Shown: piece after piece, positions 1,860 through 32,376 of the stretch
How the letters are laid out: each line of letters opens with the position of its first letter
Numbering within the stretch: the stretch's first letter is position 1
From: Pseudomonadota bacterium
GTDB taxonomy: Bacteria > Pseudomonadota > Alphaproteobacteria > Caulobacterales > Caulobacteraceae
NCBI GenBank assembly: GCA_963205025.1
Contig: CAUJHO010000013.1
Span: forward strand, 22,255 to 86,254
DNA: 64,000 nt
Reading direction: 5' to 3'
Program-made: the position numbers and the translations under genes
The notes under the pieces: generated by a model
Told to the model about the DNA's origin: nothing
Seen by the model: only the letters and a program-made list of their open reading frames with translations
Databases searched by the model: none

Positions 1860-1875
1860 TGTTTCACGTGAAACA
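1860..1875. promoter_or_regulatory. parS centromere site (ParB-binding), copy 1
   Basis: Perfect 16-bp palindrome TGTTTCACGTGAAACA, identical to the universal chromosomal parS consensus; parAB lie ~4-6 kb downstream. Confidence 0.95.
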
Positions 1876-3458: not shown

Positions 3459-3474
3459 TGTTTCACGTGAAACA
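3459..3474. promoter_or_regulatory. parS centromere site (ParB-binding), copy 2
   Basis: Perfect TGTTTCACGTGAAACA, extended to an 18-bp palindrome CTGTTTCACGTGAAACAG (3458-3475), in the mnmE-mnmG spacer. Confidence 0.95.
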
Positions 3475-5418: not shown

Positions 5419-6037
5419 TCCCGTGGACGCGCGTGCCTTTCAAAACCTGACCGGAGCCTCTGACCAGGCCATCGCTGATCTGGATCGCTATCGCCAGATG
5501 CTCGAGGCCGGCAATGCCGTGATGAACCTCGTCGGCCCGGCCAGCCTGCCCGACTTCTGGAACCGCCATGCGCTCGATAGCGCCCAGCTTCTGCCCCTGG
5601 CCCCCGACGCCCGGGTCTGGGCGGATCTGGGTGCCGGGGCCGGCCTGCCCGGCGTGGTTCTGGCTGTTCTCCTGAAGGAGGCCCCCGAGGCGAAGGTCTG
5701 GCTGATCGACAGCCAGACCAAACGTTGTCGTTTCCTTTCAGACGTTGTCAGCGCCCTGTCTCTACCAGCCGAAGTCGTCAATGCTCGGGCCGAATCCCTG
5801 TCGATCAAGGCGGATGTGGTGACGGCCCGAGCCTGTGCCCCGCTTGACAGGCTACTGCAATTTGCCGAGCCCTATCGTCGCAGGGGAGCCGAAGCGCTGT
5901 TCCTGAAAGGCGAGAAGGCCGAAGACGAAATCGCCGAGGCCCGCCGGCATCATCGCTTCGATGCCGAGGTCCTGCCGTCCGCCAGCGATCCCCGAGGTCG
6001 CATCCTTCGTATCCGGAGCCGCCAAGTTGCCGCGTGA
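5393..6037 (+). CDS. rsmG: 16S rRNA (guanine527-N7)-methyltransferase RsmG (GidB)
   Basis: GAGAGLPGVVLAVLL and ARACAPLDRLLQFAEPY motifs; position between mnmG and parA. Start uncertain; overlaps the mnmG end. Confidence 0.93.
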   Translation: MADQTRPRDPVDARAFQNLTGASDQAIADLDRYRQMLEAGNAVMNLVGPASLPDFWNRHALDSAQLLPLAPDARVWADLGAGAGLPGVVLAVLLKEAPEAKVWLIDSQTKRCRFLSDVVSALSLPAEVVNARAESLSIKADVVTARACAPLDRLLQFAEPYRRRGAEALFLKGEKAEDEIAEARRHHRFDAEVLPSASDPRGRILRIRSRQVAA

Positions 6038-6863
6038 AGTTCCCCCCCCTCGCATTCTCGCCGTCGCCAACCAGAAGGGTGGCGTTGGCAAGACAACCAC
6101 GGCCATCAATCTGGGCACCGCCCTGGCTGCGGTCGGAGAGCGGGTGCTGCTGATCGACATGGACCCCCAGGGCAATGCCTCGACCGGCCTGGGTGTGCCA
6201 CGCGAACACCGGCGGGTGACGATCTATGATTCCATCGTCGACGGTCGCCCCCTGCACGAGGCTGCGGTCGCCACCCAGGTTCCGAACCTGTGGCTGGTGC
6301 CGTCCGATCCGGACCTGTCCGGCATCGAAATCGAACTCGGCCAGGCCGACCGTCGCTCGTTCCGCCTGCGCGATGCCATAGATCGGCTCAAGCAGCTAAA
6401 GGACAGCCTGAAGCCGACCTATGTGCTGATCGACTGTCCGCCGTCGCTGAACCTGCTGACCGTCAATGCCATGTCGGCTGCCGATGCCGTGCTGGTCCCG
6501 CTGCAGTGTGAGTTCTTCGCCCTGGAGGGCCTGACCCAGCTGATGCGGACCATCGATCTGGTCCGGTCCAGTCTCAACCCCCGCCTCGACATCCAGGGCA
6601 TCGTCCTGACCATGTACGATCGCCGCAACGCCCTGTCCGGCCAGGTCGAGGCCGATGTCCGGGGCCATTTCGGCGACAAGGTCTATCAGACGGTGATTCC
6701 GCGAAACGTGCGGGTGTCGGAGGCCCCCTCCTTCGGCAAACCGGCCCTGATCTATGATTTGAAATGCGCGGGCAGCCAGGCCTATCTGAACCTGGCGCGC
6801 GAGCTGGTCCGGCGCGAAAGGGCGCGTCGTCGGTCAGAGCAACTTCTTGAGAAAGCTGAATAA
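6027..6863 (+). CDS. parA: Chromosome partitioning ATPase ParA
   Basis: Deviant Walker A KGGVGKTTTAINLGTALA, LIDMDPQGNASTGLG; TTG start at 6027 inferred by family length (the ORF extends in frame to 5961). Confidence 0.96.
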   Translation: MPREVPPPRILAVANQKGGVGKTTTAINLGTALAAVGERVLLIDMDPQGNASTGLGVPREHRRVTIYDSIVDGRPLHEAAVATQVPNLWLVPSDPDLSGIEIELGQADRRSFRLRDAIDRLKQLKDSLKPTYVLIDCPPSLNLLTVNAMSAADAVLVPLQCEFFALEGLTQLMRTIDLVRSSLNPRLDIQGIVLTMYDRRNALSGQVEADVRGHFGDKVYQTVIPRNVRVSEAPSFGKPALIYDLKCAGSQAYLNLARELVRRERARRRSEQLLEKAE

Positions 6864-7733
6864 ATGTCTGAGCGTCACCGAGGACTGGGTCGAGGCCTCT
6901 CGGCCCTTCTGAGCGAGGCGGGGGCTGATGTACCCGACGCGCCGCCGCCATCGGCTCCGACCGATATTCCGATCGAGTTGATCCGGCGCAATCCCGAGCA
7001 GCCGCGACGGACCTTCACGGAGGCCGAACTCGACTCCCTGACCGCCTCGGTCAAGGAACGTGGCGTGCTGCAGCCGATCCTGATCCGGCCCGCCCCCGAT
7101 GGCGACGGCTATCAGATCGTCGCCGGCGAACGTCGCTGGCGGGCAGCCCAGAAGGCCAGCCTGGCGACCATCCCGGCAGTCATCCGGGAGCTCGACGACC
7201 GCCAGGTCCTCGAGATCGCGATCATTGAAAATGTTCAGCGCGCCGATCTGAACCCGATTGAAGAGGCCCTGGGCTATCGCTCCCTAATCGAGCGTTTCGG
7301 GCGCACCCATGAGGCGCTTGGTGAAATCGTCGGCAAGAGCCGCAGCCATGTCGCCAACACCCTGCGTCTGCTCACCCTGCCCGACAGCGTGCGCGTCCAT
7401 GTCGAGGAAGGCCGGATCTCCGCCGGCCACGCCCGCGCGCTTCTGACCGCCGACAATGCCGAAGGCCTGGCGCAACGGATCATCGATGAAGGCCTGAGCG
7501 TCCGTCAGGTTGAAGCCCTGGCCAAGGGGCCGGAAGAACGCCCCGCTCGCGCCGGTACCCGCCGCGATGCGGCGGGGCGCAATCCCGACATCGCGGCGCT
7601 GGAGAGCGATCTCTCCGACACCCTGGGGCTTAAGGTCGACCTGGCCGACAAGGGAGGCAAGGGTGCCCTCACGCTGCGCTACGTCACGCTCGAACAGCTC
7701 GATGAACTGTGCCGGCGACTGATGCGCGGTTGA
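6864..7733 (+). CDS. parB: Chromosome partitioning protein ParB
   Basis: RGLGRGLSALL N-terminus, NPEQPRRTF, GERRWRAAQKA, HTH region SHVANTLRLLTLP; directly follows parA. Confidence 0.97.
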   Translation: MSERHRGLGRGLSALLSEAGADVPDAPPPSAPTDIPIELIRRNPEQPRRTFTEAELDSLTASVKERGVLQPILIRPAPDGDGYQIVAGERRWRAAQKASLATIPAVIRELDDRQVLEIAIIENVQRADLNPIEEALGYRSLIERFGRTHEALGEIVGKSRSHVANTLRLLTLPDSVRVHVEEGRISAGHARALLTADNAEGLAQRIIDEGLSVRQVEALAKGPEERPARAGTRRDAAGRNPDIAALESDLSDTLGLKVDLADKGGKGALTLRYVTLEQLDELCRRLMRG

Positions 7734-26396: not shown

Positions 26397-26986
26397 GACA
26401 CCATCACTCCACGCCCCCGAAGCTCGGCCAGCAGGGGCAGCAGGGGCAGGCCCAGGATGGTGAAATAGTCGCCCTCGATCCGTTCAAACAGCTGAACCCC
26501 CTCTCCCTCGAGCCAGTAGCCGCCCACCGCCGACAGGGCGGCCTCGGCATTCGTCGCCACATAGGCGTCGATATAGGTCCGGCTCAGAGACCGAACGGTC
26601 AATTCCGCTGTGTCGCAGACACTCCAGACCAGCTGGCCGTCGCAGGCGAGTGCGGCCCCGGAGTGAAGCCGGTGGGTTCGACCCGAAAACTGCCCCAGTC
26701 GCGCGCGCGCCTCGTCCAGGCTGGCAGCCTTGTCATAGAGGGTACCGTCCAGCTCCAGGGTCTGGTCCGAACCCAGCACCAGGGCACCGGGTCGGCGGCT
26801 CGAGACGGTCAGGGCCTTTTGGCCGGCCAGGGCCTCGGCGACTGCGGCCGCCGTCGCCCCTTCGCTCAGAAGCCGCCCCTTGAACGCGCTCTCGTCCAGA
26901 TCGGCCGGATCGAGCGACACCTCGACGCCCGCAGCCTGGAGCATCTGGCGTCGGGCCGAACTTCGGCTGGCGAGGATCAGGGTCAT
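26393..26986 (-). CDS. Maf family nucleotide pyrophosphatase
   Basis: LILASRSSARRQMLQAAGVEV, VLGSDQTLELDG, YWLEGEGVQLFERIEGDYFTILGLPLLPLL. Confidence 0.95.
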   Translation of the reverse strand: MTLILASRSSARRQMLQAAGVEVSLDPADLDESAFKGRLLSEGATAAAVAEALAGQKALTVSSRRPGALVLGSDQTLELDGTLYDKAASLDEARARLGQFSGRTHRLHSGAALACDGQLVWSVCDTAELTVRSLSRTYIDAYVATNAEAALSAVGGYWLEGEGVQLFERIEGDYFTILGLPLLPLLAELRGRGVMVS

Positions 26987-27831
26987 TGCGAGGCTCCCAG
27001 CTTGCCGGACCGACGCTCATTGATCAGATTGATGACCTGGGCAGCTGTCTCCTCGACGGATCGACGCGACACATCGATTACCGGCCAGCCCAGTCTTTCG
27101 AACAGACGGCGGGCCCGCACCGTTTCCTCGCGGACGCGGTCCGTATCGACATAGTCGGTGGTGGGGTCGACCCCCAGATGCTGCAGACGATTGCGACGGA
27201 TGGACACCAGCCGGTCCGGCGAGACGACCAGTCCGACCACCAGCGGGTGCTTCAGCTGTGAAAGAAGCTCGGGCGGGTCCTGGGTCGGGACCAGGGGCAC
27301 ATTGGCCGCCCGGATTCCCCGATGAGCCAGATAGACGCAGGTCGGCGTCTTGGACGTCCGGCTGACCCCCACCAGCACCACATCGGCGCGCTCCAGTTCG
27401 TCCAGGCCCTGGCCGTCATCATGGTGCATGGCGAAATCCAGGGCCCCCATGCGTTCGAAATAGTCGCTGTCCAGGGCGTGCTGGGCCCCGATCTTCCTTG
27501 ACAGGGCCGCCCCCAGATAGCCGCCGACCACCTTCACCAGCGGATCCAGGGCCCCGAGCTGGGGGGCGCCGACACGGCGACATCCCGCCTCCAGCATCTG
27601 ACGAAGCTCGGGGTCCACCAGCGTATGCAGGACGATCCCGGGGGCCGCCTCGATCTCCTCCAGCACCCGCTCGAGCTGTCGGGGCGTCCGGACCAGGGCA
27701 TAGATGTGCTCGATCGGAATGACGCCCTCGAAACGGGCCACCACGGCCTTGGCCATGGCGTTCAGGGTCTCGCCGGTGGAATCCGACACCAGATGAACAT
27801 GGAAATAGGTCGAGAACCTGCGGGGAGGCAT
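26983..27831 (-). CDS. ppsR: Pyruvate, water dikinase / PPDK regulatory protein (DUF299; RP001 homologue)
   Basis: YFHVHLVSDSTGETLNAMAKAVVARFEG, DVVLVGVSRTSKTPTCVYLAHRGIRAANVPL; ATG at 27831. Confidence 0.95.
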   Translation of the reverse strand: MPPRRFSTYFHVHLVSDSTGETLNAMAKAVVARFEGVIPIEHIYALVRTPRQLERVLEEIEAAPGIVLHTLVDPELRQMLEAGCRRVGAPQLGALDPLVKVVGGYLGAALSRKIGAQHALDSDYFERMGALDFAMHHDDGQGLDELERADVVLVGVSRTSKTPTCVYLAHRGIRAANVPLVPTQDPPELLSQLKHPLVVGLVVSPDRLVSIRRNRLQHLGVDPTTDYVDTDRVREETVRARRLFERLGWPVIDVSRRSVEETAAQVINLINERRSGKLGASQ

Positions 27832-28286
27832 CACGACTTTCGGGGGAAGGGATGTGGACAATCGGGTCTCGGTTGGGGGCGGGAAATGCGAAACCGGACC
27901 CTAGCGCGCCTTGACCGGCAACGCACCTGGGACGGAGGTGGACGAATCTTAAGCCTGTCCCCAGGTCTGTGCGTGCCGCCCAGCCCCGAGATTCACAGCC
28001 GGGGACAATTTCAACGGCGTCTCGACTGTACCCAGGTCGATCCCTCGCCATCGTTAAGACTTTGGTAAGGAACTCTTAAGCCTTTCTTAACCATCCCCGC
28101 TGTCCCCAGACCCGTGGACAGATCGCACCGGTCGCCTTCAAACCTGTCGGTGACTTGGGGTCTGGCGGGGAACAGGGCCAGGTTTCCCCCGTGATCCAGC
28201 CCGACTACTGATCTCTTCAATCCTTCTTGAATCCTCTTTTCTTGAGAGGGATTGAGCCTGATCCGGGGACGGCCTAGGACGCCTCC
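27832..28286. other. Candidate chromosomal replication origin (oriC, Caulobacter Cori type)
   Basis: Non-coding gap between divergent ppsR and hemE. Contains TTAA-N7-TTAA (28076-28090), TTAA-N7-GTAA (28054-28068), TTGTCCACA on minus (27853-27861), CTGTCCCCAG twice (27955-27964, 28100-28109), three GANTC sites (27945-27949 region, 27990-27994, 28229-28233) and an AT-richer stretch ~28205-28255. Confidence 0.8.
28076..28090. promoter_or_regulatory. CtrA-binding box (full consensus TTAA-N7-TTAA)
   Basis: TTAAGCCTTTCTTAA exact; near-consensus TTAAGACTTTGGTAA lies 22 bp upstream (28054-28068). Confidence 0.75.
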
Positions 28287-29321
28287 ATGTCTGACCAACC
28301 TGATTTCCTGCGCGCCCTCGCCGGCGAAACCCTGGGCCGTCCGCCAGTCTGGTTCATGCGCCAGGCGGGCCGTTACCTGCCGGAATATCGCGCGCTTCGG
28401 GCCAAGGCCCCGGACTTCATCGGCTTCTGCCTGAATCCCGAGATGGCCGCAGAGGCCACTCTTCAGCCGATGCGGCGGTTCCCGTTCGATGCCGCCATCG
28501 TCTTTGCCGACATCCTGCTGATTCCAAAGGCGCTGGGCCAGGAGGTCTGGTTCGAGGCCGGCGAAGGGCCCAGGCTCGGTGCCCTACCGGACTTGACCCA
28601 GATGCGGGATCTGGCCCCCCGATCCGGTGAAACCCTGTCCCAGGTTGGAGAAACCCTCTCGCGGGTCCGGGCCGAGCTGCCGATCGACAAGGCCCTGATC
28701 GGCTTTTGTGGAGCTCCCTGGACGGTCGCGACCTATATGTTGGACGGGGTCGCGCGCACCATCGGCAAGGGCGAGCGCGCCAATGCCCGCACCTATGCCT
28801 ATGCTGATCCCGAGGGGGTGGATGCCCTTCTGGCCATTCTGGTTGAGGCCAGCGCCTGGTACCTCAAGATGCAGGCCGACGCCGGGGCCCAGGCCTTGCA
28901 GGTCTTCGAAAGCTGGGCCGAGGGCCTACCCGACGATCTGTTCGAGCGGTTGGTGGTCAATCCGCACCAGATGTTGCTGGCGCGTCTGTCCGAGCTGGGC
29001 GTTCGCGTGCCGATCATCGGGTTTCCGCGCGGCTCCGCGGCCCTTGTCGAGGACTATGCGGCGCGGGTCCCGGTCCAGGCCATTGGCCTGGACACTGCCT
29101 GTCCACTGGCCGTAGGGCGGCGGGTCCAGGCGCTCAAACCCATCCAGGGGGCGCTCGATCCTCTGGTCCTGAGGGCTGGAGGCGCGGCCCTAGACCGCCG
29201 GATCGATCAACTACTCGACAGCTGGGGGAACGGCCCTTGGGTGTTCAACCTCGGCCACGGCATTCTGCCGGATGTGCCCATCGCCCATGTCGAACAGGCC
29301 CTCAAGCGGATCAAGGGCTGA
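28287..29321 (+). CDS. hemE: Uroporphyrinogen decarboxylase
   Basis: FLRALAGETLGRPPVWFMRQAGRYLPEYR, DAAIVFADILLIPKALG, FNLGHGILPDVPIAHVE. Confidence 0.98.
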   Translation: MSDQPDFLRALAGETLGRPPVWFMRQAGRYLPEYRALRAKAPDFIGFCLNPEMAAEATLQPMRRFPFDAAIVFADILLIPKALGQEVWFEAGEGPRLGALPDLTQMRDLAPRSGETLSQVGETLSRVRAELPIDKALIGFCGAPWTVATYMLDGVARTIGKGERANARTYAYADPEGVDALLAILVEASAWYLKMQADAGAQALQVFESWAEGLPDDLFERLVVNPHQMLLARLSELGVRVPIIGFPRGSAALVEDYAARVPVQAIGLDTACPLAVGRRVQALKPIQGALDPLVLRAGGAALDRRIDQLLDSWGNGPWVFNLGHGILPDVPIAHVEQALKRIKG

Positions 29322-31038: not shown

Positions 31039-32376
31039 ATGACTGACGAAACCCTGATCGACCACGACCTCGACCCGGCTGCAGAGGGCGACGAAGACGG
31101 CCAGGCGGCCAACCAGCGCATTGCCCTGTCGGAGCTGAAGGACAAGACCGCCGCCGAGCTGGTCGCCTTCGCCGAAGATCTGGAGGTCGAAAACGCCTCC
31201 AACCTTCGCAAGCAGGACCTGCTGTTCGCCATCCTCAAGACCCTGGCCGACGAAGAGGTCGAGATCTCCGCCGGCGGCGTGCTGGAAGTGCTCCAGGATG
31301 GCTTCGGCTTCCTCAGAAGCGCCGACGCCAACTACCTGTCGGGACCCGATGACATCTATGTCTCGCCGTCCCAGATCAAGCGCTTCGGCCTTCGCACCGG
31401 CGACACGGTTGAGGGCACGGTGCGTGGCCCGCGTGAGGGCGAACGCTATTTCGCCCTGCTCAAGGTCGATTCGATCAACTTCGAAGATCCCGAAAATGTC
31501 CGCCACAAGGTCAATTTCGACAATCTGACGCCGCTCTATCCCGATGAGCGGCTGCATATGGAAATCCAGGATCCGACCCTGAAGGACCGGTCGGGCCGGG
31601 TCATCGACATCGTCGCGCCGCTCGGCAAGGGCCAGCGCTGCCTGATCGTGGCACCGCCGCGCGTCGGCAAGACCGTGATGCTGCAAAACATCGCCAAGTC
31701 GATCGAGGCCAACCACCCCGAGGTCTTTCTGATGGTTCTGCTCATCGACGAGCGGCCCGAAGAAGTCACCGACATGCAGCGCACCGTGAAGGGCGAGGTT
31801 GTGGCCTCGACCTTCGACGAGCCTTCGACCCGCCACGTCGCCGTGGCCGAAATGGTCATCGAGAAGGCCAAGCGCCTGGTCGAGCACAAGAAGGATGTCG
31901 TCATCCTGCTGGACTCGGTCACCCGCCTGGGCCGGGCCTATAACGCCACGGTCCCGTCCTCGGGCAAGGTTCTGACCGGTGGTGTCGATGCCAATGCCCT
32001 GCAGCGGCCCAAGCGCTTCTTCGGGGCGGCCCGAAACATCGAAGAGGGCGGCTCCCTGACCATCATCGCTACGGCCCTGATCGACACGGGCTCGCGCATG
32101 GACGAGGTCATCTTCGAAGAGTTCAAGGGCACCGGTAACTCGGAAATCGTGCTGGACCGCAAGGTGGCGGACAAGCGCATCTTCCCGGCTATCGATGTGC
32201 TGAAGTCCGGCACCCGCAAGGAAGATCTGATCACGCCCAAGGACCAGCTGACCAAGACCTATGTTCTGCGCCGGATCCTGAACCCCATGGGACCGCAGGA
32301 CGCCATCGAATTCCTGCTCGACAAGCTCAGACAGTCCAAGAACAACGCCGACTTCTTCCAGTCGATGAACACCTAA
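31039..32376 (+). CDS. rho: Transcription termination factor Rho
   Basis: [67 protein letters not shown]-terminal [10 protein letters not shown]. Confidence 0.98.

What the first reader, a model, noticed from the sequence alone, without database searches (positions are those of the whole stretch)
27832..28286. Probable chromosomal replication origin between ppsR (RP001 homologue) and hemE
Seen: the main ~0.45-kb gap between divergently transcribed ppsR and hemE, with TTAA-N7-TTAA (28076-28090), a second TTAA-N7-GTAA exactly 22 bp upstream (28054), TTGTCCACA on minus (27853-27861), a repeated 10-mer CTGTCCCCAG (27955, 28100), related GGGGACAATT and GTGGACA motifs, three GANTC sites and an AT-richer stretch near hemE. 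Knowledge: Caulobacter Cori lies between RP001 and hemE and is bound by CtrA and DnaA; GANTC is the CcrM site. Inference: this is oriC, and the two CtrA boxes at 22-bp phasing could give cooperative binding on one DNA face.
Basis: partly seen in the sequence, partly recalled or inferred. Interest (0 to 1): 0.75.

Follow-up and report, generated by a model that had tools for sequence, protein, structure and literature searches.

The report
Chromosome replication origin of a Brevundimonas
This short gap between two genes is very probably where this Brevundimonas bacterium starts copying its chromosome; it is the same kind of origin as in the well-studied relative Caulobacter, with one unusual feature, a row of four evenly spaced docking half-sites for the cell-cycle regulator CtrA.

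Summary
Window 27832-28286 is the divergent ppsR (COG1806/RP001)-hemE gap of a Brevundimonas genome, the position of the experimentally defined Caulobacter origin Cori. The same divergent gap occurs in dozens of relatives. GC skew changes sign within about 4 kb of it, here and in the sister genome; dnaA lies elsewhere, on DNA with no such switch. The gap is enriched in DnaA-box cores (8 against 2.1 expected). It also holds CtrA boxes, as do 49 of 51 Caulobacteraceae gaps, 35 of them with an exact box. CtrA and a RAMA-domain protein, probably CcrM, are encoded.

Corrections: the three GANTC sites are at chance level; no IHF consensus was found; no Caulobacter-type G-box is present (TTGTCCACA instead); the raw skew minimum is at 32.37 kb. 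The "repeated 10-mer" contains the Caulobacter weak DnaA "W-box" TCCCCA. The two CtrA boxes are really one array of four half-sites at exact 11-bp steps (28054-28090). Among 131 Brevundimonas genomes this array occurs twice, here and at the origin of one sister species.

This is a new member of a known kind with a lineage-specific CtrA array. Origin activity and protein binding remain untested.

The parts
27832..28286 (.). Replication origin (Cori-type) in the divergent ppsR-hemE gap, 455 bp
   Evidence: Synteny with Cori, nearby GC-skew switch, motif enrichment
26986..27831 (-). ppsR (kinase/pyrophosphorylase, COG1806/DUF299, RP001 homologue), left boundary gene
   Evidence: PF03618, E 3e-89
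28287..29321 (+). hemE, uroporphyrinogen decarboxylase, right boundary gene
   Evidence: PF01208, E 3.8e-97
27853..27861 (-). DnaA box TTGTCCACA (1 mismatch to TTATCCACA); best DnaA site, at the position of a conserved TGTGGA in other Brevundimonas
   Evidence: 9/9 identical in the sister genome
27937..27945 (-). DnaA-box core TCGTCCACC
27955..27963 (+). W-box-type weak DnaA site CTGTCCCCA (first copy of the 10-mer CTGTCCCCAG)
   Evidence: W-box consensus TCCCCA from PMC4285127
28000..28008 (-). W-box-like DnaA site TTGTCCCCG
   Evidence: near-invariant CTG[TG]GGA in the relatives' alignment
28054..28090 (+). CtrA array: half-sites TTAA-GTAA-TTAA-TTAA at 28054, 28065, 28076, 28087, exact 11-bp steps
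   Evidence: all 16 half-site bases invariant in the sister genome
28091..28099 (+). W-box-like site CCATCCCCG directly after the CtrA array; TCCCC or TCCAC at this place in all aligned relatives
28100..28108 (+). W-box-type weak DnaA site CTGTCCCCA (second copy of the 10-mer)
28113..28121 (-). DnaA-box core CTGTCCACG
28204..28252 (.). AT-richer stretch, candidate DNA-unwinding element
   Evidence: 65% AT over 40 bp against 40% for the gap; AT peak within the last 140 bp before hemE in 45 of 51 Caulobacteraceae gaps
1861..1874 (.). parS site GTTTCACGTGAAAC (origin-linked partition site)
3460..3473 (.). parS site GTTTCACGTGAAAC
5961..7730 (+). parA and parB, chromosome partition genes in the origin neighbourhood
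   Evidence: PF13614; PF02195, PF17762, PF23552

Best explanation
The gap is the chromosomal replication origin, of the Caulobacter Cori type. Proposed working: DnaA first occupies the one good box (TTGTCCACA, minus, 27853) and then, cooperatively, the weak TCCCCA/TCCACG-type boxes spread across the gap, and opens the AT-richer stretch just upstream of hemE (28204-28252). In cells with phosphorylated CtrA, CtrA fills the four in-phase half-sites at 28054-28090, two dimers side by side on one face of the helix. This excludes DnaA from the abutting weak boxes (28091-28108) and so blocks initiation until CtrA is removed. Shown here: location, motif anatomy, enrichment, conservation, nearby skew switch, presence of CtrA and DnaA genes. 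Inferred: protein binding, exclusion, unwinding, and use as an origin in vivo.
For: Divergent ppsR-hemE gap as in Cori (PMC1914354), recovered in 84 distinct relatives' gaps. Window skew is -0.036 left of the gap and +0.032 right of 32.4 kb. The sister contig has its minimum at the same place. B. albigilva sampled at 20 points: -0.017 left against +0.014 right, p 0.017. 51 Caulobacteraceae gaps hold 51 exact CtrA boxes against 0.1 expected, and 313 DnaA cores against 99. The CtrA array is unique in the genome and, among 131 Brevundimonas genomes, occurs only here and at the sister's origin. Putative sites are 62/65 identical to the sister genome against 312/390 elsewhere in the gap, Fisher p 0.0014. 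CtrA 88% identical to the query, RAMA-domain protein present. parS and parAB within 27 kb.
Against: The raw GC-skew minimum is 4.1 kb away at 32,373, after rho. The hemE-rho segment carries left-arm-like raw skew, although its fourfold-site skew matches right-arm leading genes (-0.072 against -0.074, only four genes). No IHF consensus, no TGATCCACA G-box, and GANTC not enriched. No binding or replication data.
Confidence: 0.93

Rival explanations
1. The gap is only a divergent, CtrA- and DnaA-regulated promoter region for ppsR and hemE; the origin lies elsewhere, for example beside dnaA.
For: CtrA and DnaA also regulate promoters. In Caulobacter the strong hemE promoter carries two cooperating CtrA sites (PMC11264516). 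dnaA lies on another contig.
Against: No skew switch at dnaA: own dnaA contig negative in 9 of 10 2-kb bins around the gene; sister contig positive at the samples on both sides of its dnaA at 711 kb. The skew switch is within 4 kb of the gap. dnaA position varies from about 230 to 620 kb from hemE in four Brevundimonas genomes where both are on one contig. No sigma-70-like promoter in the gap.
Confidence: 0.04
2. The origin is a few kilobases away, at the rho-dapB junction near 32.37 kb where raw GC skew turns.
For: The cumulative GC-skew minimum is at 32,373 and a keto-skew minimum at 32,375. The minimum lies 4.5-5.3 kb downstream of the hemE start in several relatives too.
Against: rho ends and dapB starts within about 15 bp, so there is no intergenic space for an origin. 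The junction is lineage-specific: B. albigilva and G073 have rho followed by trmE. Fourfold-site skew of hemE-rho resembles right-arm leading genes.
Confidence: 0.02
3. It is the origin, but the four-half-site array acts mainly as a CtrA-controlled promoter (like Caulobacter hemE Ps) whose transcription through the origin helps initiation, rather than as a DnaA-exclusion block.
For: Caulobacter hemE Ps has CtrA sites at -35 and -10 with cooperative binding and repression (PMC11264516), a layout that a 22-bp step between boxes could match.
Against: No sigma-70-like promoter found (a crude scan). The array abuts W-box-type DnaA sites at 28091-28108, which favours exclusion. The two roles are not exclusive.
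Confidence: 0.25

Closest known systems
Caulobacter crescentus Cori (hemE-CC0001)
   Same: Same flanking genes; CtrA TTAA-N7-TTAA boxes; weak TCCCCA W-box-type DnaA sites; AT-rich element
   Different: Cori has five CtrA sites spread over its length, two TGATCCACA G-boxes and an IHF site (PMC1914354, PMC4285127). Here one compact array of four half-sites, one TTGTCCACA box, and no IHF consensus
Rickettsia and Wolbachia-type alphaproteobacterial origins (hemE/COG1806 or hemE/COG1253)
   Same: hemE-flanked gap with DnaA and CtrA motifs (PMC1914354)
   Different: Host-restricted genomes and, in Wolbachia, a different left boundary gene
hemE Ps promoter CtrA pair of Caulobacter
   Same: Two neighbouring CtrA sites with reported cooperative binding (PMC11264516)
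   Different: Here four half-sites at exact 11-bp steps, three of them TTAA, with no detected promoter

Membership tests
Cori-type alphaproteobacterial origin | Lies between hemE and COG1806 (ppsR/RP001) | tested here: met
Cori-type alphaproteobacterial origin | GC-skew switch at or near the locus | tested here: met
   Switch within about 4 kb in the window and in the sister genome; not exactly at the gap
Cori-type alphaproteobacterial origin | CtrA boxes TTAA-N7-TTAA | tested here: met
   One exact box (p 6e-4); three boxes in all with at most one mismatch (p 5e-5)
Cori-type alphaproteobacterial origin | Cluster of DnaA boxes | tested here: met
   8 cores against 2.1 expected, p 5e-4; only one close to the full 9-mer consensus
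Cori-type alphaproteobacterial origin | Caulobacter-type G-boxes TGATCCACA | tested here: not met
   None present; TTGTCCACA instead. A trait described for Caulobacter rather than for all such origins
Cori-type alphaproteobacterial origin | IHF site | tested here: not met
   No WATCAN5WTR match on either strand, own or sister; a degenerate site is not excluded
Cori-type alphaproteobacterial origin | AT-rich unwinding region | tested here: met
   65% AT over 40 bp near hemE, conserved in position in 45 of 51 gaps
Cori-type alphaproteobacterial origin | Supports autonomous replication; read-depth peak; DnaA and CtrA binding | not testable with these tools
   Needs experiments
Basal unwinding system (DnaA-trios) | Three or more DnaA-trios within about 16 bp of a DnaA box | tested here: inconclusive
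   CTACTGATC at about 28204 reads as three trio-like triplets about 14 bp after a poor box GTTTCCCCC (28182-28190); read by eye, no chance estimate made (definition: PMC8287927)

The most novel reading that the evidence does not exclude
In this Brevundimonas sub-lineage origin control by CtrA has been rebuilt: the upstream CtrA box seen in many other Brevundimonas is lost, and a compact in-phase array of four half-sites has arisen next to the weak DnaA boxes, giving an all-or-none switch by two cooperating CtrA dimers.
Probability: 0.3. Interest if true: 0.5.

Novelty: new member of a known kind. Interest (0 to 1): 0.3.

Why it matters
It places the origin in a draft genome where dnaA would mislead, and adds a comparative set of about 50 Caulobacteraceae origins in which CtrA and DnaA sites are strongly enriched while exact layouts turn over. 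The compact four-half-site array is a clean natural test of whether CtrA cooperates across neighbouring boxes to shut off an origin.

Tried and rejected
GANTC sites as evidence: rejected, chance level. IHF site: none found. Origin at dnaA: rejected on skew. Origin at rho-dapB: rejected, no intergenic space and lineage-specific junction. DnaA-trio unwinding motif: inconclusive. Sigma-70 promoter in the gap: none found. The EMBO J. 2000 paper on CtrA at Cori is not in the library, so the spacing of the Caulobacter boxes could not be checked against it.

Full report
Observation. ppsR and hemE are confirmed by Pfam. The gap from the ppsR ATG to the hemE ATG is 455 bp, 27832-28286. With it, half-sites TTAA 28054, GTAA 28065, TTAA 28076 and TTAA 28087 form one array at exact 11-bp steps, so that three overlapping CtrA boxes can be read.

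Chance. Against 20,000 dinucleotide-preserving shuffles of the gap, an exact CtrA box has p about 6e-4, the four-half-site array was reached in none, and eight DnaA-box cores TCC[AC]C[AG] compare with 2.1 expected, p 5e-4. GANTC (3 against 2.8) is not enriched. The array with (T/G)TAA half-sites occurs once, exactly, in the own genome and once in the sister genome, both times in this gap. In 131 genomes of the genus there is no other exact occurrence.

What genome. The window lies in a 2.54-Mb, 99-contig assembly. Its nearest relative by hemE is a Caulobacterales MAG (88% identity), followed by named Brevundimonas at 75-78%. B. viscosa's hemE gap is identical to that of a 'same genus' genome, so the genus is Brevundimonas.

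Origin evidence. (1) Position: Cori lies between hemE and COG1806 (PMC1914354). The same divergent gap, mostly 330-600 bp, was recovered in 84 distinct sequences. (2) GC skew: -0.036 for window 1-27831, -0.034 for hemE-rho, +0.032 from 32.4 kb on. The minimum is at 32,373, and the sister contig has its minimum at the corresponding place. At fourfold-degenerate sites hemE-rho averages -0.072, like right-arm plus-strand genes (-0.074) and unlike left-arm plus-strand genes (-0.167), so the 4-kb offset is probably coding-strand bias (few genes). Twenty samples of the complete B. albigilva chromosome give mean skew -0.017 on the left of hemE and +0.014 on the right, p 0.017. (3) dnaA is not the landmark: it is on another contig here, about 230-620 kb from hemE in relatives where both are on one contig, and no skew switch is seen around it. 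(4) parS and parAB lie 20-26 kb to the left.

Comparative footprint. In 51 Caulobacteraceae gaps, 35 have an exact CtrA box and 49 at least one with up to one mismatch; totals are 51 and 108 against 0.1 and 2.6 expected. DnaA cores total 313 against 99 expected. In 33 other gaps CtrA boxes are much rarer (5 exact against 0.3) while DnaA cores remain enriched, 138 against 37. CtrA boxes cluster 200-300 bp before hemE. The alignment of 23 near relatives shows a near-invariant CTG[TG]GGA, a CtrA box followed by TCC[AC]C, a TGTGGA or similar near ppsR, and an AT-rich stretch before hemE; the AT peak is within the last 140 bp in 45 of 51. Own against sister: 82% identity over the gap, but 62 of 65 bases in the named sites, Fisher p 0.0014; all 16 half-site bases are unchanged. 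The sites were chosen after seeing both sequences, so that p value is indicative only.

Reading of the motifs. CTGTCCCCAG contains TCCCCA, the W-box consensus for weak DnaA sites in Cori (PMC4285127). TTGTCCACA on minus, one mismatch from TTATCCACA, stands where relatives have TGTGGA. Three Caulobacter-like gaps in the set (L103, L106, L110) carry the G-box TGATCCACA next to a CtrA half-site; the window gap does not.

Mechanism, by analogy with Cori, where CtrA is thought to exclude DnaA from moderate and weak boxes (PMC4468827): CtrA~P would fill the array and cover the abutting weak DnaA sites, and its removal would allow DnaA to assemble and open the AT-rich stretch. The genome encodes a CtrA 88% identical to the Caulobacter sequence that I supplied from memory as query, a RAMA-domain protein as in CcrM, and DnaA. 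Binding and function are not shown. At Caulobacter hemE Ps two CtrA sites bind cooperatively (PMC11264516), so cooperation between neighbouring boxes has precedent, and a promoter role for the array cannot be excluded.

Verdict. A Cori-type origin, ordinary in kind, with a lineage-specific compact CtrA array.

Noticed in passing
window 1-33600; G073 960-1013 kb; G082 1720-1752 kb: The trmE-gidA-parA-parB-holA-leuS block lies on the ppsR side of the origin here and in the sister genome G080, but on the hemE side directly after rho in B. albigilva and G073; dapB-dut, left of the origin in G073, directly follows rho here.
   Followed up: partly
window 32373: The raw GC-skew minimum coincides with the rearranged rho-dapB junction.
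   Followed up: partly
G000 contig C8:23432-23914: dnaA is on a different contig from the origin gap in this assembly and 230-620 kb away in relatives, so dnaA is a poor origin marker in Brevundimonas.
   Followed up: yes
window 27832-27861: The ppsR frame is open upstream to a TTG at 27861, which would place the TTGTCCACA box inside the gene; the ATG at 27831 is preferred.
   Followed up: no
L004: A MAG titled Bordetella sp. carries a Brevundimonas-type ppsR-hemE origin region (hemE 78%, ppsR 73%); probably mislabelled.
   Followed up: no
L090: The gap of genome G009 (another genus of the family) has two adjacent CtrA-like boxes just before ATCCCCG, a possible independent compact arrangement.
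   Followed up: no
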